Assembly (NCBI GenBank): GCA_022013895.1
Contig: JAKLPK010000039.1
Location: forward strand, 1 to 41,935
Source of the DNA: Cellulomonas sp.
Lineage (GTDB): Bacteria > Actinomycetota > Actinomycetes > Actinomycetales > Cellulomonadaceae
Length of the DNA stretch: 41,935 bases
Direction: 5' to 3'
The notes beneath the pieces are model-generated. The model did no database searches, was not told where the DNA came from, and worked only from the letters and a program-made list of their open reading frames with translations. Below, piece by piece: positions 30,183-41,935 of this stretch (positions within the stretch are counted from its first letter, which is position 1; every line of letters begins with the position of its first letter). The translations under genes and the position numbers were made by a program.

Positions 30183-31448
30183 GTGCTGACTGCCGCCTCG
30201 GGTGCCGGGACCGTCGTGGCCGTCGGGCTGCTGCTCGCGGTGCTCGCGTTCTCGGTGACCCGCCCGCGTGGGCTGCCGGAGGCGGTCGCGGCCGTCCCGG
30301 CGGCGGCGATCGTCGTCGTGACCGGTCTGGTGACCTGGGCGCAGGCCGGGGAGGAGGTCGCGGCGCTCGCGCCCACGGTCGGGTTCCTGGCGGCCGTGCT
30401 GGTGCTCGCCGAGCTGGCGCGGGCCGAGGGCGTGTTCGCCTGGGCGGGCGCCCGGATGGCCTCGGCGAGCCGAGGGTCGCCGCGGCGGCTGCTCGGCGCG
30501 GTGTTCGTGGTGGCCTCGCTCACGACGGCGGTGCTCAGCCTGGACGCCACCGTGGTGCTGCTCACGCCCGTCGTGCTGGCCGCGGCGACGGCGGTCGGCG
30601 CCCGGCCCCGGCCCGGGGTGTACGCCAGCACCCACCTGGCGAACTCGGCGTCGACGCTGCTGCCGGTGTCGAACCTCACCAACCTGCTGGCGTTCGCCGC
30701 GAGCGGGCTCACGTTCGCCGGATTCGCGGGGCTGATGGCGGCGCCGTGGCTGGTCACCGTGGCCGTCGAGTACGCGGTGTTCCGGCTGTTCTTCCGGGCC
30801 GATCTGGCGGCGCCCGCGCACGAGGTCCGATCGTCGGCCCCGCCTGCGCCGCGGTGGGCGCTCGCGGTGCTGGCGCTCACCCTCGTCGGGTTCGCGGTGG
30901 CCGAACCGCTGGGGGTGGCACCCGTCGTCGTCGCCGGGGTCGCCGTGCTGGTGCTCGCTGCCGGACGGTTGCGGACCGCGCCCCGGGCGACCGCGACGAG
31001 CATGGTGCGGGCCGTCAACCCGCTGTTCCTGGTGTTCGTGCTGGCGCTCGGCGTCGTCGTGCTCGCCGTGCGGCGCGGACCGGTCGGCGATCTGCTGGTC
31101 ACCCTGGTCCCGGCCCGGCCGGACCTGCTCGGGCTGCTGGTGGCCGCCGGGCTGGCGGCGCTCGTCGCGAACCTGCTCAACAACCTGCCGGCCACGCTCG
31201 TGCTGGTGCCGGCCGTCGCGCACTCACCGGGACTGGTGCTCGCGACGCTGCTCGGGCTCAACATCGGGCCCAACCTCACCTACGTCGGGTCGCTGGCGAC
31301 CCTGCTGTGGCGTCAGGTGCTGCACGGCCACGGGCACGCGCCCTCGGCCGCGGTGTTCATCCGTCTGGGGCTGGCGACGGTGCCGGCCGCCCTCATCGCC
31401 GCGGTGCTGGCGCTCTGGGTCTGTCTGCAGGTGGGAGGCGTGTCATGA
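30183..31448 (+). CDS. ArsB/SLC13-like ion transporter
   Basis: The 421-residue protein has about eleven or twelve helices in two halves. Each half carries a re-entrant motif of the ion-transporter superfamily: SLDATVVLLTPVVLA with HLANSASTLLPVSNLTNLLAF, and ANLLNNLPATLVLVPAV with GLNIGPNLTYVGSLATLLW. This is the ArsB (arsenite/antimonite) and SLC13 pattern. No ArsR-CxC regulator or ArsC gene is adjacent, so arsenite export is unproven and the substrate may be another anion. GTG 30183. The downstream Usp-like gene overlaps it by 4 nt. Confidence 0.87.
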   Translation: MLTAASGAGTVVAVGLLLAVLAFSVTRPRGLPEAVAAVPAAAIVVVTGLVTWAQAGEEVAALAPTVGFLAAVLVLAELARAEGVFAWAGARMASASRGSPRRLLGAVFVVASLTTAVLSLDATVVLLTPVVLAAATAVGARPRPGVYASTHLANSASTLLPVSNLTNLLAFAASGLTFAGFAGLMAAPWLVTVAVEYAVFRLFFRADLAAPAHEVRSSAPPAPRWALAVLALTLVGFAVAEPLGVAPVVVAGVAVLVLAAGRLRTAPRATATSMVRAVNPLFLVFVLALGVVVLAVRRGPVGDLLVTLVPARPDLLGLLVAAGLAALVANLLNNLPATLVLVPAVAHSPGLVLATLLGLNIGPNLTYVGSLATLLWRQVLHGHGHAPSAAVFIRLGLATVPAALIAAVLALWVCLQVGGVS

Positions 31449-31861
31449 CGATCGTGGTCTGGCTGGTCGAAGGGACGTGGGAGGCCTGCGTCGACGCCGT
31501 GCGGCGGCTGCCCGACGGGCCGGTGGCGCTGCTGCACGTGATCGACGACGACGTGGCCGACGCGTGGGCCGGGGCGCCAGCGGGGTTGATGGGGCGTGGT
31601 GGGGGACGTGGGGACGTCGGGGCGCTGGAGGCGGCGGGACGTGGGCTGCTGGAGGCCGCGCTCGATCGACTGGGGCGCGAGGCCGAGGTGTGGCTGCGGG
31701 CGGGGCGGTCCGAGCACGTCGTCGTCGGGGCGTGCGGGGCCGGGGACCTGCTGGTGATGGCGCGGGACGACCCTCGGCCGGGGCCGCACAGCTTCGGGCG
31801 GGCCGGGCGGTTCGTCGTGGATCACGTGGGGTGCGATGTGCTGGTGGTGCGGGGTGGGTGA
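31445..31861 (+). CDS. Universal stress protein-like small protein
   Basis: The 138-residue protein has the alternating strand-helix layout of the Usp fold and ends in GPHSFGRAGRFVVDHVGCDVLVVR, which matches the usual G-SVA-YLLRHAPCPVLVVR nucleotide-binding C-terminus. Its middle is unusually Gly/Arg-rich (GLMGRGGGRGDVG). ATG 31445 overlaps the stop of the transporter gene, so the two are translationally coupled; the protein may modulate the carrier. The family assignment rests mainly on the C-terminus. Confidence 0.75.
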   Translation: MTIVVWLVEGTWEACVDAVRRLPDGPVALLHVIDDDVADAWAGAPAGLMGRGGGRGDVGALEAAGRGLLEAALDRLGREAEVWLRAGRSEHVVVGACGAGDLLVMARDDPRPGPHSFGRAGRFVVDHVGCDVLVVRGG

Positions 31862-31941
31862 TTGGGGTGGTGGGGCTGGTGGCGCTGTCCATGCAGCGAG
31901 GGTTCTAGTTCTTGGGCTCCGCTCGCGGGACGGAGTTTCGG

Positions 31942-31965
31942 AACGTGCTATCTAGCCCGGAGCTG
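31942..31965 (+). promoter_or_regulatory. Candidate Cascade target of the upstream crRNA-like RNA
   Basis: AAC (31942-31944) could serve as a PAM and is followed by a 21-nt stretch starting GTGCTATCTAG. Against the guide of the crRNA-like RNA (starting GTGCTGTCCAG at 32125) positions 1-5, 7, 8, 10, 11, 13, 15, 19 and 20 match, 13 of 21. Mismatch 6 is the base flipped out in type I-E Cascade. The stretch ends exactly where the -35 box TTGACA begins. A match of this quality can arise by chance, so confidence is limited. Confidence 0.45.
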
Positions 31966-31994
31966 TTGACACCAGACCATCTCCGACCTAGCCT
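31966..31994 (+). promoter_or_regulatory. Consensus-like promoter upstream of the crRNA-like RNA and cas operon
   Basis: TTGACA (31966-31971) and TAGCCT (31989-31994) are separated by 17 nt, an optimal housekeeping sigma spacing. The transcript would start near 32001, cross two CRISPR-like repeats and could read into cas3. Confidence 0.7.
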
Positions 31995-32040
31995 CGCTTC
32001 TCAGGCGGGGCACGTGGCAGCCAGTCGCGAGCAGCTTGAT

Positions 32041-32084
32041 GGTGGAACCTCTCCGGCAACCCAGCCGGTTGCGGTTTCCCCACC
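32041..32084 (+). other. Leader hairpin of the crRNA-like transcript
   Basis: Nested inverted repeats: GGTGG/CCACC outside, AACC/GGTT in the middle, CCGGC/GCCGG inside around loop AACCCA. It stands about 40 nt after the predicted start and just before degenerate repeat 1. It may protect the RNA or affect readthrough. Confidence 0.5.
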
Positions 32085-32090
32085 GACCCG

Positions 32091-32123
32091 TTCTTCCCCG
32101 GTGGTGCGACTCGGGGGTGGTCC
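32091..32123 (+). repeat. Degenerate CRISPR repeat 1
   Basis: Its last 12 nt (CGGGGGTGGTCC, 32112-32123) are identical to the 3' end of the array repeat, including the complete 7-nt handle. The 5' part reads TTCTTCCCCG against GTCGTCCCCG in the array. The stem is CCCCG/CGGGG with an 11-nt loop in place of the usual 4-nt loop, so this copy is 5 nt longer. Cas6e recognition is plausible but weakened. Confidence 0.75.
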
Positions 32124-32145
32124 GGTGCTGTCCAGTCGGATTCTC

Positions 32146-32173
32146 GTGGTCCCCGCCCGCGCGGGGATGGTCC
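32146..32173 (+). repeat. Degenerate CRISPR repeat 2
   Basis: 25 of 28 positions match the array repeat at 41342. The changes are C to G at position 3, T to C at 13 (in the loop) and G to A at 22 (first handle base). The Cas6e stem CCCCGC/GCGGGG (32151-32156 and 32161-32166) is unchanged. It lies more than 9 kb upstream of the array and on the same strand. Confidence 0.9.
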
Positions 32174-32202
32174 GGGTCGGCGTCGCGCCAGCCCGGACCA
32201 TC
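32166..32202 (+). terminator. Long hairpin overlapping the second degenerate repeat
   Basis: GATGGTCCGGG (32166-32176) pairs perfectly with CCCGGACCATC (32192-32202); inside, GGCG/CGCC continue the stem around loop TCG. TGTTC follows. It recruits the handle half of repeat 2 into the stem, so no second functional guide is expected, and it may end the small RNA or attenuate cas transcription. Confidence 0.6.
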
Positions 32203-32211
32203 TGTTCAACC

Positions 32212-32263
32212 TCGCCCATCAGGGCGATTGCCCCTTGACGTCGCCTTTCGGTGCGGCAAGGGT
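32212..32263 (+). promoter_or_regulatory. Short hairpin and possible second promoter before cas3
   Basis: TCGCCC-ATCA-GGGCGA (32212-32227) is a perfect 6-bp stem-loop. TTGACG (32235-32240) follows, and 17 nt further AAGGGT (32258-32263) is a poor -10. A weak dedicated cas promoter starting close to the cas3 start codon is possible. Confidence 0.35.
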
Positions 32264-32274
32264 CGTGCTGGCGG

Positions 32275-35115
32275 ATGGGGGGATCCGGGGTGTGGAACGC
32301 AGCATGGGCGAAGGCGCCACGGCCTGTCGACGATGGCGCCCCCCTGTGGTCGAGCCTCGCAACGCACCTCGATGACGCGGCGAGGATCGCAGGTCGCCTG
32401 TGGGACGAGTGGGTCGGCTCAGGTCTGCATCGCCTCGTGGAGAAGGACGTCGGGAACTCCGCCCGTACCGTCGCCCTGGCAGCCGCGGCGCTGCACGACA
32501 TCGGCAAGCTCACCCGGGCTTTCTCCGCTCAGGAGCCGTCCATGCGGGCGCATATGGAGAAGGCCGGGTTTGGCTACCTGAGCAGAGCGTCGCCCGCGGA
32601 CGCTCGTGTGCTGCCGCACAGCCTGGCCGGACACGTCATCGTGCGGGACTGGCTTGTCCAGCAGGGCGTCCCGGAGCGGCACGCCGCAGCGTTCGCCACG
32701 ATCGTCGGGAGCCACCACGGGACGTTCCCCTCGATGGCGGTCGTCCAGGAAGCGGGTCGGCGCAGGTCCTTGTTCGGCGACGACGAGTGGGACACGGCCC
32801 GTCATGAGCTGCTCGCCAGGGTCGTCGCGGACCACGGGCTCGCAGGCCTCGTGGACACGCTGCGGGAGCACCGGCTGAGTGACGCGACTCAGGTGGCGCT
32901 CGCGGGCTTCGTCATCGCAGCCGACTGGATCGCTTCCAACTCCGATCTCTTCCCGCTGTCGCCCGCGTTCGCAGCGCCGCGTGCCGCAGGTCCCGTTCGT
33001 GCCGAGCTGGCGTGGCACGACCTCGCGCTGCCAGCGGCGTGGGCGCCCACCGACGAGTGCCTGACGGCCTCGGCGACCGAGTTGTTGCGTGCGAGGTTCC
33101 CGCACGCCAGCGCCTTCGCGGCCCGGCCGGTCCAGGAGCTCGCGGTGCAGGCGGCCCGCACCATGGCCGAGCCCGGGCTGCTGCTCATCGAGGCGAGCAT
33201 GGGCACGGGCAAGACGGAGGCGTCGCTGCTGGCCGCCGAGGTGATGGCACGGCGGTGGGGATACTCCGGCGTCTTCTACGGACTGCCGACCCGGGCCACC
33301 ACCGACGCGATGTTCCACCGCGTCCTCCAGTGGTGGTCGACGGTCCCCGACCGTCACGGCGACGCGACCAGGTCGGTCGGGCTACGGCACTCCTCGGCCG
33401 GCCTCAACGACGAGTTTCGCGGCCTCCCGAGGGGGGCGACGCCCGGGCGCGACGGCGCAGCCTTCTTCGTCGGGCCGCCCAGCGACGTCGGGCGAGACGA
33501 GGTGGAACAGGTGCGCCACCGCCGGGACACCGCGCTCGACGTCGTTGTCCACCAGTGGACCTCGGGCCGCAAGAGGGGCGCGCTGGCCGACTGCGTCGTC
33601 GCGACCATCGACCACGAGCTGATGGCGGCGCTGGTGGCCCGGCACGTGCAGCTGCGGCACCTCGGGCTGCTGCGCCAGGTGGTGGTGCTCGACGAGATCC
33701 ACGCGGCCGACACGTGGATGCGGGTCTACCTCGAGCGGTCGCTCGAATGGCTGGGGCGCTACGGCGTGCCGGTGATCGCCCTGTCCGCGACGCTGCCGCC
33801 CGACCAGCGCGCCGCGCTCGTGCACGCGTACGAGCGAGGTCGGCGCGCTGGGCTGCCCGAGGTCGCCGAACCGCTGCCTGCCGTGCCGGCCACGCACGAG
33901 TACCCGGTGGTGACGGCGCTGGCAGCCGGTCAGGTCTCGCAGGTCTCGCGGGTCTCGCTGGTCGCGTCCGAGGTCGACGTGGAGTGGCTGCCGGACGACC
34001 TTGAGGTGCTGACTGGGCGGCTGTCGGCAGAGCTCGCTGAGGGTGGCTGTGCCCTCGTGGTCTGCAACACCGTCACGCGTGCCCGCACGCGGTACGTCGC
34101 GCTGCGCGAGCGCTTCGGCGACCGCGTCAGCCTCACCCACTCGCGGTTCATCGCCCGCGACCGGGCCTCGAAGGACGCTGACCTGGTGCACGCGTTCGGG
34201 CCTGGGCCGGGCGGTGCCCGTGACGGTCGCATCGTCGTGTCGACCCAGGTGGCTGAGCAGTCCCTGGACATCGACTTCGACCTGCTGATCAGCGATCTTG
34301 CGCCCGTCGACGTGCTGCTGCAGCGCGTCGGACGGCTGCACCGTCACGACCGCCCACGGCCGGGCGGCTTGGCCCGTGCGCGTCTGATCGTCACCGGCGC
34401 TGACGTCGGTGTCAGACCCCAGGTGGACGGTGGGTCCATGAAGGTCTACGGGGGGCATCTGCTGCTGCGCACGGCCGCGCTGCTTCGTGAGCTCGTCGAG
34501 GCGGGCCGGCCCATCCGGCTCCCGGCCGACGTGCCGTTGCTCGTCGACCGCTGCTACGGCGACGAGCCGCTCGGCCCTGCGGCGTGGGTCGACGAGATGG
34601 CGGCGGCGCGTCAGGAGGCCGTCGACCTCGCGGCGGAGACGGCGCGGAATGCCGGGAGCTTCGCGCTCGCGGCGCCGTCGCCGCGGGGCAGCGTCCTGGG
34701 CTGGAGGCTGCGTTCCGTCGGGGATGCGACCGACGGTACGCAGGGGGCTGCGCAGGTTCGTGAGCCGGACGGCGGTTTCGAGGTCGTCCTGCTCGAACGC
34801 GCCGAGGACGGGCTGGCGCTGCCCGCGCACCTGGGGGACGCGCGGGCCCTGCGCACCGACATGCCGCCCTCGCCGGCGATGTCGCGGGCGCTCGCCGGCT
34901 GCCTCGTGCGCGTGCCGGGCTGGGTCACCACGCGCCCGTCCGACGCCGCCGCCATCTTCGACGATCTGAACGTCAACTACTTCCCGGCCTGGCAGAAGGA
35001 CCCCGTCATGGGCGGCCAAGTGATCCTCGTCCTCGATGCCGACGGGAACGGCCACCTGGGGCGCTTCCCCGTCTCCTACGACCCGACCCTTGGCCTGGAG
35101 GTTCTCTATGCCTGA
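32275..35115 (+). CDS. cas3: Type I-E CRISPR helicase-nuclease Cas3
   Basis: The protein of about 946 residues joins an HD nuclease and a superfamily 2 helicase, the effector that degrades DNA marked by Cascade. HD-domain residues: H74-D75 in LHDIGKL, HSLAGH and SHHG. Helicase motifs: Walker A MGTGKTEASL (about 310), DEIH (VVLDEIHAADTWM), SAT (ALSATLP), and the C-terminal QVAEQSLDIDFDLLISD and QRVGRLHRHDRP. The CTD follows to the end. The start is uncertain among GTG 32251, ATG 32275 and GTG 32290; the family-like sequence begins at WAKAPRPVDDG. Its stop overlaps the cse1 start region by 8 nt. All catalytic motifs are intact. Confidence 0.95.
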   Translation: MGGSGVWNAAWAKAPRPVDDGAPLWSSLATHLDDAARIAGRLWDEWVGSGLHRLVEKDVGNSARTVALAAAALHDIGKLTRAFSAQEPSMRAHMEKAGFGYLSRASPADARVLPHSLAGHVIVRDWLVQQGVPERHAAAFATIVGSHHGTFPSMAVVQEAGRRRSLFGDDEWDTARHELLARVVADHGLAGLVDTLREHRLSDATQVALAGFVIAADWIASNSDLFPLSPAFAAPRAAGPVRAELAWHDLALPAAWAPTDECLTASATELLRARFPHASAFAARPVQELAVQAARTMAEPGLLLIEASMGTGKTEASLLAAEVMARRWGYSGVFYGLPTRATTDAMFHRVLQWWSTVPDRHGDATRSVGLRHSSAGLNDEFRGLPRGATPGRDGAAFFVGPPSDVGRDEVEQVRHRRDTALDVVVHQWTSGRKRGALADCVVATIDHELMAALVARHVQLRHLGLLRQVVVLDEIHAADTWMRVYLERSLEWLGRYGVPVIALSATLPPDQRAALVHAYERGRRAGLPEVAEPLPAVPATHEYPVVTALAAGQVSQVSRVSLVASEVDVEWLPDDLEVLTGRLSAELAEGGCALVVCNTVTRARTRYVALRERFGDRVSLTHSRFIARDRASKDADLVHAFGPGPGGARDGRIVVSTQVAEQSLDIDFDLLISDLAPVDVLLQRVGRLHRHDRPRPGGLARARLIVTGADVGVRPQVDGGSMKVYGGHLLLRTAALLRELVEAGRPIRLPADVPLLVDRCYGDEPLGPAAWVDEMAAARQEAVDLAAETARNAGSFALAAPSPRGSVLGWRLRSVGDATDGTQGAAQVREPDGGFEVVLLERAEDGLALPAHLGDARALRTDMPPSPAMSRALAGCLVRVPGWVTTRPSDAAAIFDDLNVNYFPAWQKDPVMGGQVILVLDADGNGHLGRFPVSYDPTLGLEVLYA

Positions 35116-41297: not shown

Positions 41298-41341
41298 ATC
41301 GCCATCGGAGCTGGCGCGACTATCGTCCCAGGTCAAGAAGT
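41298..41341 (+). promoter_or_regulatory. CRISPR leader (3' part)
   Basis: The 44 nt between cas2 and repeat 1 contain no gene. They include ATCGTCCCAGG (41322-41332), which echoes the start of the repeat. The array is on the same strand as the cas genes, so this is the leader end and repeat 1 is the newest. No clear promoter fits in 44 nt; it probably lies within cas2, or the array is read with the operon. Confidence 0.6.
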
Positions 41342-41935
41342 GTCGTCCCCGCCTGCGCGGGGGTGGTCCCGCGAGCGTCACCCCACCAGCGAGCACCGCA
41401 TAGTCGTCCCCGCCTGCGCGGGGGTGGTCCGCGGTCGGACACCGCTGTCTGGGACAGGAACAGGTCGTCCCCGCCTGCGCGGGGGTGGTCCCCCCCGGGC
41501 AGCGAACGCGTGCGAGTCAGGGCGGTCGTCCCCGCCTGCGCGGGGGTGGTCCGGACGGGCGACTCATCGCCAGGTGCCTGATCTGGTCGTCCCCGCCTGC
41601 GCGGGGGTGGTCCGTCCTCCGGCAAAGCGGAGACGGCCGTCAGCTCGTCGTCCCCGCCTGCGCGGGGGTGGTCCTCCCCCGGCAGGATCAGACCGCCTTC
41701 AACGAGAGTCGTCCCCGCCTGCGCGGGGGTGGTCCCGCACAGGTGTCCGGCGACGCGCAGGTGTACGAGTCGTCCCCGCCTGCGCGGGGGTGGTCCCTAC
41801 GTCACGGCACGCGACCTATTCCGCCTCCGGTCGTCCCCGCCTGCGCGGGGGTGGTCCCCCGTGCCGCGCCGAGCCCGGACACGTCGGTCCGTCGTCCCCG
41901 CCTGCGCGGGGGTGGTCCGTCTCGGACGGTGGCCC
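41342..41935 (+). CRISPR. Type I-E CRISPR array, ten identical repeats (runs off window)
   Basis: Ten 28-nt repeats start at 41342, 41403, 41464, 41525, 41586, 41647, 41708, 41769, 41830 and 41891, always 61 nt apart, so nine spacers of 33 nt are complete and a tenth is cut at the window end. All ten repeats are identical. Each starts GTCGTCCCC, forms the stem CCCCGC/GCGGGG around CTGC and ends GTGGTCC. Cas6e cleavage after the stem leaves an 8-nt handle whose last base is the first base of each spacer unit (C five times, G four, T once). The perfect conservation indicates an active, leader-proximal part of the array. Confidence 0.99.

What the first reader, a model, noticed from the sequence alone, without database searches (positions are those of the whole stretch)
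32091..32173. Two degenerate CRISPR repeats form a mini-CRISPR upstream of cas3 (CreR/CreA-like RNA)
Seen in sequence: two repeat-like copies 22 nt apart, more than 9 kb from the array and on the same strand. Copy 2 matches the array repeat at 25 of 28 positions with an unchanged Cas6e stem. Copy 1 keeps the last 12 nt exactly, and its stem is CCCCG/CGGGG with an enlarged loop. Known: CreR and CreA RNAs of type I and V systems have a repeat-spacer-repeat form near cas genes and guide the effector to a promoter without cleavage. Inference: processing would give a roughly 50-nt RNA with a 21-nt guide, 11 nt short of normal, which would assemble a smaller Cascade and favour repression over Cas3 cleavage.
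Basis: partly seen in the sequence, partly recalled or inferred. Interest (0 to 1): 0.92.

Follow-up and report, generated by a model that had tools for sequence, protein, structure and literature searches.

The report
Guide RNA silencing its own CRISPR
Just in front of this bacterium's CRISPR genes lies a worn-down two-repeat mini-CRISPR whose short guide matches the likely control region of those same genes, so the defence machinery probably uses it to switch itself down; the same design recurs with different guide sequences in related bacteria.

Summary
The repeats are real: copy 2 (32146-32173) matches the array repeat at 25/28, copy 1 (32096-32123) keeps its last 12 nt, the gap is 22 nt. 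Guide 32125-32145 matches 31945-31965, beside an AAC PAM, at positions 1-5, 7, 8, 10, 11, failing at 6 and 12 (bases Cascade flips out) and at 9. The site abuts the window's only TTGACA-N16-18-TANNNT. The same anatomy, each guide fitting its own cas3-upstream site, recurs in 25 of 75 actinobacterial type I-E loci (window included), 9 of 48 more, and 9 of 80 named loci (partly overlapping). Over 34 curated pairs position 12 matches in 6/34, positions 10, 11, 13, 14 in 111/135. Spacers are 21-22 nt (14) or 33-34 nt (17), two 6-nt Cas7 steps apart; three differ. I read it as a CreR-type, Cascade-guided autorepressor of the cas operon. CreR is known for types I-B, I-E and V-A; the recurring 12-nt-shortened guide may be new. 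RNA and repression are untested; the two nearest Cas3 relatives lack the element.

The parts
31942..31944 (+). PAM, AAC, of the predicted Cascade target
   Evidence: AAN precedes the target in all 34 curated pairs (AAC 25, AAT 6, AAG 2, AAA 1), but AAN was a search criterion there, with no PAM filter, 11 of 12 best-scoring sites had AAN. AAN is reported as the effective PAM of the Streptomyces avermitilis type I-E system (PMC12231136, section 7 part 1 read).
31945..31965 (+). predicted target (protospacer) of the mini-array guide: matches at 1-5, 7, 8, 10, 11, 13, 15, 19, 20; mismatches at 6, 9, 12, 14, 16-18, 21
   Evidence: AANGTGCTNTCNAG, a pattern written to fit this site, occurs once in the 3.76-Mb genome, here
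31966..31994 (+). promoter-like site TTGACA-N17-TAGCCT reading towards the mini-array and cas3; abuts the target
   Evidence: only match of TTGACAN{16,18}TANNNT on both strands of the window, expected 0.01 (pattern chosen after seeing the site); the stricter E. coli-type scan found none
32096..32123 (+). degenerate repeat 1 (psi-R1): 5-bp stem with 11-nt loop, 5' handle GTGGTCC (32117-32123) intact
32117..32166 (+). predicted mature CreR RNA, 50 nt (inferred from Cas6e cutting 3' of the stems)
   Evidence: inference from repeat anatomy; fold of this stretch keeps the 3' hairpin
32125..32145 (+). guide, 21 nt (32124 is the eighth, PAM-side handle position)
32146..32173 (+). degenerate repeat 2 (psi-R2), 25/28 to the array repeat, stem intact
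32251..35115 (+). cas3; likely real start GTG at 32290 (MWNAAWAK)
   Evidence: NCBIfam; the alignment consensus begins xxxWAK
41342..41918 (+). canonical type I-E CRISPR array, 10 repeats before the contig ends

Best explanation
The element is a type I-E CreR: a minimal CRISPR turned regulator. Inferred steps: a transcript, most simply from the promoter at 31966-31994, runs through the mini-array into cas3; Cas6e cuts 3' of both stems and frees a 50-nt crRNA-like RNA (32117-32166) with an intact 5' handle and a 21-nt guide; it assembles a Cascade probably shorter by about two Cas7 subunits; this binds 31942-31965 next to an AAC PAM by limited seed pairing, abutting the -35 box, and blocks RNA polymerase, lowering cas (and its own) transcription. 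Cas3 attack is avoided because pairing beyond the seed is poor. Canonical crRNAs and anti-CRISPRs compete for or disable Cascade and so relieve repression. Shown here: repeats, guide, target, PAM, 6-nt match periodicity across related loci, quantised guide lengths. Not shown: transcription, processing, binding, repression.
For: Target beside a promoter-like site. With no PAM filter, 11 of 12 hand-picked mini-arrays had as best-scoring site in about 960 nt one with AAN and a complete 1-5,7,8 seed; L152 did not. Wrong-locus pairings reached this in 8 of 888, shuffled guides in 11 of 2400. Of 257 guides that follow a handle and stem, 19 had such a target (one, L140, a plain array spacer that I dropped), against 3 reversed and 1 complemented decoys. 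Over 34 curated pairs positions 10 and 11 match in 29/34 and 32/34, position 12, which no search scored, in 6/34, position 6 in 5/34: the flipped-base rhythm of Cascade. Copy 1 keeps the handle (mean 6.1/7) and loses the 5' end (4.0/9); copy 2 keeps the 5' end (7.6/9) and loses the handle (3.1/7) in 25 loci (biased by how the copies were found), as described for creA (PMC9458426 and PMC8501985, passages).
Against: No RNA or expression data. The window's pairing alone is modest (13/21, mismatch at position 9; chance of a seed-plus-AAN site per locus about 0.5-1%); the case rests on the family. 50 of the 75 loci have no accepted element, and degenerate repeats without a target also occur (L152, L148, L163). 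The relaxed scans had no decoys of their own, with like criteria, reversed guides gave hits in 4 of 80 loci against 11 real. The two nearest Cas3 relatives show none. The window's copy 2 keeps 6/7 of the handle, less worn than most. The lowest-energy fold of the precursor pairs copy 1 with copy 2; the fold with both Cas6e hairpins lies 1.9 kcal/mol above. A promoter scan around 25 targets gave modest enrichment (8 sense, 11 antisense in the top 10%; its range stopped one base short of the window's promoter, whose score there was poor).
Confidence: 0.85

Rival explanations
1. Decayed remnant of an older CRISPR array; the seed match is coincidence.
For: Copy 2 is nearly intact; full arrays do lie upstream of cas3 in some relatives (for example L048, L055, L122, L137, L140); the nearest relatives lack the element; the chance of such a site in one locus is about 0.5-1%, small but not nil.
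Against: Other mini-arrays match their own cas3-upstream sites far above wrong-locus and decoy controls; decay does not predict a 6-nt match rhythm or a cluster of 21-22-nt gaps.
Confidence: 0.07
2. CreA of a CreTA addiction module: the guide represses a small toxic RNA between the promoter and copy 1, not cas3.
For: In Halobacterium hubeiense creTA lies just upstream of the cas operon and CreA pairs by positions 1-5 and 7-11 (PMC8501985 passages); about 100 nt lie between the promoter and copy 1.
Against: 31995-32095 holds no TTA, AGA, ATA or CTA triplet in any frame (one AGG), and the + strand frames starting there run on for 74-181 codons through the mini-array; no CreT-like rare-codon mini-gene.
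Confidence: 0.06
3. Cas6e acts on the two hairpins as a processing switch in the cas3 leader; no guide function is needed.
For: The mini-array lies on the sense strand between promoter and cas3, so cutting would also change the cas3 mRNA 5' end.
Against: In other loci the mini-array lies on the strand opposite to cas3 (L045, L051, L116, L131, L132, L153, L156, L157, L159); guide/target matching would be unexplained.
Confidence: 0.04

Closest known systems
CreR (cas-regulating RNA; types I-B, I-E, V-A)
   Same: Mini-CRISPR beside cas genes; partial complementarity to the cas promoter. [quoted passage not shown] more in passages of PMC12737573. The primary paper (Liu et al. 2023, Cell Host Microbe) is not held.
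   Different: In 19 of the 41 distinct mini-arrays I accepted, the window's included, the spacer is 21-22 nt (21 of 41 if one of 14 and one of 27 nt are counted); I cannot say whether the primary paper reports short guides.
CreA of CreTA (type I-B)
   Same: Two degenerate repeats, psi-R1 keeping the handle and psi-R2 losing it; seed 1-5 and 7-11 suffices, 6 and 12 free (PMC8501985, PMC9458426; passages).
   Different: No toxin-like mini-gene here; the I-E repeats form hairpins; one mismatch within 7-11 (position 9).
Engineered short-spacer repression with type I-B
   Same: A 24-nt spacer repressed without interference in Haloarcula (PMC10989794, abstract) and spacers of 26 nt or less in Parageobacillus (PMC10551041, passages); a natural 21-nt guide fits.
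   Different: Different subtype and fully complementary designed guides; PMC10551041 says that no evidence showed shortened crRNAs guiding repression in the E. coli I-E system.
Standalone repeats/mini-arrays surveyed by Shmakov et al. 2023 (NAR; recalled, not held)
   Same: As recalled, a computed catalogue of crRNA-like elements whose spacers partly match cas promoters.
   Different: Could not be checked for actinobacterial I-E loci or guide lengths.

Membership tests
CreR | repeat-spacer-repeat unit apart from the array, beside cas genes | tested here: met
CreR | seed (1-5, 7-11) complementary to a cas promoter, next to the PAM | tested here: met
   9 of 10 seed positions, AAC PAM, abutting TTGACA-N17-TAGCCT; position 9 mismatched, as in 10 of 34 curated pairs; the promoter is predicted, not mapped
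CreR | limited complementarity beyond the seed (no full R-loop) | tested here: met
   13/21 in all, 4/10 at positions 12-21
CreR | Cas6-dependent small RNA | not testable with these tools
   no RNA data; stems can form
CreR | Cascade-dependent repression of cas genes | not testable with these tools
   needs an experiment
CreA (CreTA) | adjacent toxic RNA gene with rare codons under the targeted promoter | tested here: not met
   no TTA/AGA/ATA/CTA triplet in 31995-32095
canonical CRISPR array | near-identical repeats and 33-nt spacers | tested here: not met
   copy 1 shares 15/28 with the repeat, gap 22 nt
canonical CRISPR array | adaptation leader | tested here: inconclusive
   the 60 nt before the array share with 31861-32250 only words of 7-8 nt; the leader itself is not defined

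The most novel reading that the evidence does not exclude
Actinobacterial type I-E systems have repeatedly evolved a dedicated short-guide CreR whose spacer is cut by exactly two Cas7 steps (33/34 to 21/22 nt), assembling a smaller regulatory Cascade that pairs with a cas3-upstream promoter by the seed but is not competent for normal interference, so that the size of the complex separates regulation from immunity.
Probability: 0.4. Interest if true: 0.78.

Novelty: new variant of a known kind. Interest (0 to 1): 0.64.

Why it matters
[quoted passage not shown] This gives loci, guides, PAMs and targets that make the question directly testable, and a set of natural guide/target pairs showing which positions type I-E Cascade may need for repression. 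The two quantised guide lengths suggest that Cascade size is tuned to uncouple repression from cleavage, which would also help gene silencing with native type I-E systems whose Cas3 is intact. I cannot exclude that the CreR primary paper (not held) already reports part of this.

Tried and rejected
Rfam on 31700-32400 gave three weak matches far below their gathering scores. Blastn of the region against plasmids found nothing; blastn of the array against phages found nothing, so the PAM could not be read from spacers. In 81 genomes of the genus (own included) the 539-nt region gave only short matches outside the own genome (best 46 bits), so no orthologue of this mini-array was found and conservation of the window's own guide could not be tested. 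The first PWM scan and assumed that genome-search loci are oriented; they are not. The shift+5 decoy (11 AAN hits in 8 loci) is invalid because a shifted guide matches its own place; I count only the reversed and complemented decoys. An early wish to read meaning into the target base at position 6 was dropped: 5/34 matches is only somewhat below chance.

Choices and rows dropped: the 12 mini-arrays were picked by hand, before targets were sought, from the 18 loci with repeat pairs (11 taken; L055, L122, L140, L142, L144, L145, L148 left out as arrays or array edges) plus L114 added by hand (handle 5/7). The window's own target had already been seen by eye then. Seven of the 81 other genomes with a Cas3 match were not fetched (G587, G714, G732, G749, G819, G833, G902). 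Searches gave matches in 94 genomes, but loci for at most 30 each; the 48 not seen before were scanned. One search kept the best 80 of 506. Dropped as array spacers, inverted repeats or matches to a repeat: L140; L139, L140, L155; L179, L192, L199 and extra rows of L180 and L188; L231, L244 and one of two L284 rows. L269 and L284 are the same elements as L176 and L113. L122 (31-nt gap) and L159 (14-nt gap) have uncertain copy-2 borders.

Full report
What is there. The window is contig C251 of an unnamed assembly (3.76 Mb, 304 contigs), an actinobacterium by its Cas3 relatives. A complete type I-E operon runs from cas3 to cas2 and is followed by a CRISPR array of 10 identical 28-nt repeats at 61-nt spacing, cut off by the contig end. 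Before cas3 lie two repeat-like copies: 32096-32123, of which the 3' stem arm and 5' handle are exact, and 32146-32173, 25/28 to the array repeat with an intact stem. The gap is 22 nt. This confirms the observation.

The target. In type I-E the base after the 7-nt handle belongs to the PAM side (recalled), so the guide is GTGCTGTCCAGTCGGATTCTC. In the 389 nt before cas3 the best site apart from the guide itself is 31945-31965, score 20 against 16 for the next; elsewhere in the 42-kb window two other sites also score 20, with CTG and ACG before them. The site is preceded by AAC, matches at 1-5, 7, 8, 10 and 11, and fails at 6, 9 and 12. The pattern AANGTGCTNTCNAG, written to fit it, occurs once in the whole genome, here; the backwards control pattern also occurs once. 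The site abuts TTGACA-N17-TAGCCT at 31966-31994, the only match of TTGACAN{16,18}TANNNT in the window (expected 0.01; pattern chosen after seeing it). AAN is the reported effective PAM of the S. avermitilis type I-E system (PMC12231136, section 7 part 1 read). Taken alone this is suggestive: a seed-plus-AAN site arises by chance in about 0.5-1% of guide/locus pairings.

The family test. I fetched the cas3 neighbourhoods of 74 other type I-E loci (74 of 81 genomes with a match), found each locus's own repeat (four loci had no array in view and a neighbour's repeat was used), and looked upstream of cas3. Paired degenerate repeats recur. For 12 mini-arrays picked by hand (window and L114 included) I scored every site within about 960 nt without a PAM filter: in 11 of 12 the best site had AAN and a complete 1-5,7,8 seed; L152 failed. 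Guides paired with the wrong locus reached the same in 8 of 888, shuffled guides in 11 of 2400. A strict scan of 257 guides that follow a handle and stem gave 19 loci with a target, of which I dropped L140; reversed guides gave 3 hits and complemented guides 1. With L114 and six loci from a relaxed scan without decoys the count is 25 of 75 loci, window included; 50 have no accepted element. In 48 further loci from two families, 12 gave a hit and I accept 9 (no decoys). In 80 named loci, some of them the same genomes as before, 11 gave a hit and I accept 9, two of them already counted; decoys there gave hits in 4 loci (reversed) and 1 (complement), so a few accepted elements from the relaxed scans may be chance. 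By eye the guides differ from locus to locus, apart from close pairs (L177 with L188, L151 with L286), and each fits its own region.

Signature of Cascade. Over the 34 curated pairs (25 + 9), match frequencies are 29/34 and 32/34 at positions 10 and 11, 6/34 at 12, 25/34 at 13, 25/33 at 14, 8/33 at 18, and 5/34 at 6. Position 12, scored in no search, against positions 10, 11, 13, 14 gives Fisher p = 2.6e-12; positions 18, 24, 30 against their neighbours p = 0.0098 (pairs taken as independent, which a few are not). This is the rhythm of a type I effector, in which every sixth guide base is not paired; in CreA, changes at 6 and 12 were tolerated while the ten others of the first twelve were needed (PMC8501985 passages). 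Position 9 is weaker than expected in this family (24/34). Copy 1 keeps the handle and copy 2 the 5' part and stem, as reported for creA psi-R1 and psi-R2 (PMC9458426 passages); my search criteria favour this pattern, so it is supporting only.

Guide lengths. The 34 spacers measure 21 (10), 22 (4), 33 (10), 34 (7), 27, 31 and 14 (one each). Of the 17 that are not 33 or 34, 15 equal 3 or 4 modulo 6 (p = 4.5e-6 against one third). The seven additional distinct elements add 21 (4), 22 (1) and 33 (2). The classes differ by 12 nt, two Cas7 steps. On a quick Cas3 tree of 123 rows the short class (16 rows, 14 to 27 nt) needs 14 changes, at least 10 of them forced by well-supported branches, and is not clearly more clustered than shuffled labels (66 of 500 as low). 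The tree program warned of long branches (among them L113, L132, L136, and L045 joined with L162). Thus mini-arrays come and go, and the short length has probably arisen repeatedly, unless the elements move between loci.

Mechanism. The mini-array lies in the predicted leader of cas3 on the sense strand, downstream of the targeted promoter. The simplest loop is that one promoter makes both the cas mRNA and the precursor; Cas6e frees the 50-nt RNA; a Cascade carrying it returns to the promoter and lowers both. Review passages describe CreR as competing with crRNAs for Cas proteins and as relieved by anti-CRISPRs (PMC12737573). Short guides repress without cleavage in type I-B (PMC10989794 abstract; PMC10551041 passages), but in type I-E shortened Cascades are said to keep reduced cleavage (PMC7296934 passages), so here the poor pairing beyond the seed (4/10 at positions 12-21) is the likelier safeguard. 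The precursor can fold with both Cas6e hairpins at 1.9 kcal/mol above its minimum.

Novelty. CreR in type I-E is stated in print (PMC13131331 passage). No held paper has three or more of the terms type I-E, Actinobacteria, CreR, degenerate repeat, cas3 promoter; in the listings of other searches for CreR and standalone repeats I saw nothing on this. A 2025 actinomycete review in which CreR does not occur asks whether such regulation exists. The primary CreR paper and the Shmakov survey are not held, so the short-guide class is new only as far as I could read. I file the window element as a CreR member on the sequence features tested, with RNA and repression untested.

Noticed in passing
32166-32176 / 32192-32202: A perfect 11-bp inverted repeat (GATGGTCCGGG / CCCGGACCATC) begins at the end of the stem of copy 2, takes in its handle and folds strongly, without a T-run after it. 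It may sequester the second handle, end the precursor or shape the cas3 leader.
   Followed up: partly
L154 and L287 (cas3-upstream regions): One guide fits two AAC-flanked sites near cas3 (L154; L287, Amycolatopsis arida), hinting at double operators.
   Followed up: no
34 curated pairs, guide position 9: Position 9 is mismatched in 10 of 34 pairs although CreA of type I-B was reported to need 7-11; type I-E repression may tolerate it.
   Followed up: no
31958-31965 and 41306-41313: The short word CGGAGCTG is shared by the target and the sequence just before the array; probably chance.
   Followed up: no
L045, L051, L116, L131, L132, L153, L156, L157, L159: In these loci the mini-array lies on the strand opposite to cas3, so it must be transcribed separately there, unlike the window's sense-strand layout.
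   Followed up: partly
30833-30860: A 23/28 repeat-like stretch inside an open reading frame upstream of the gap; stem not kept, so probably chance.
   Followed up: no
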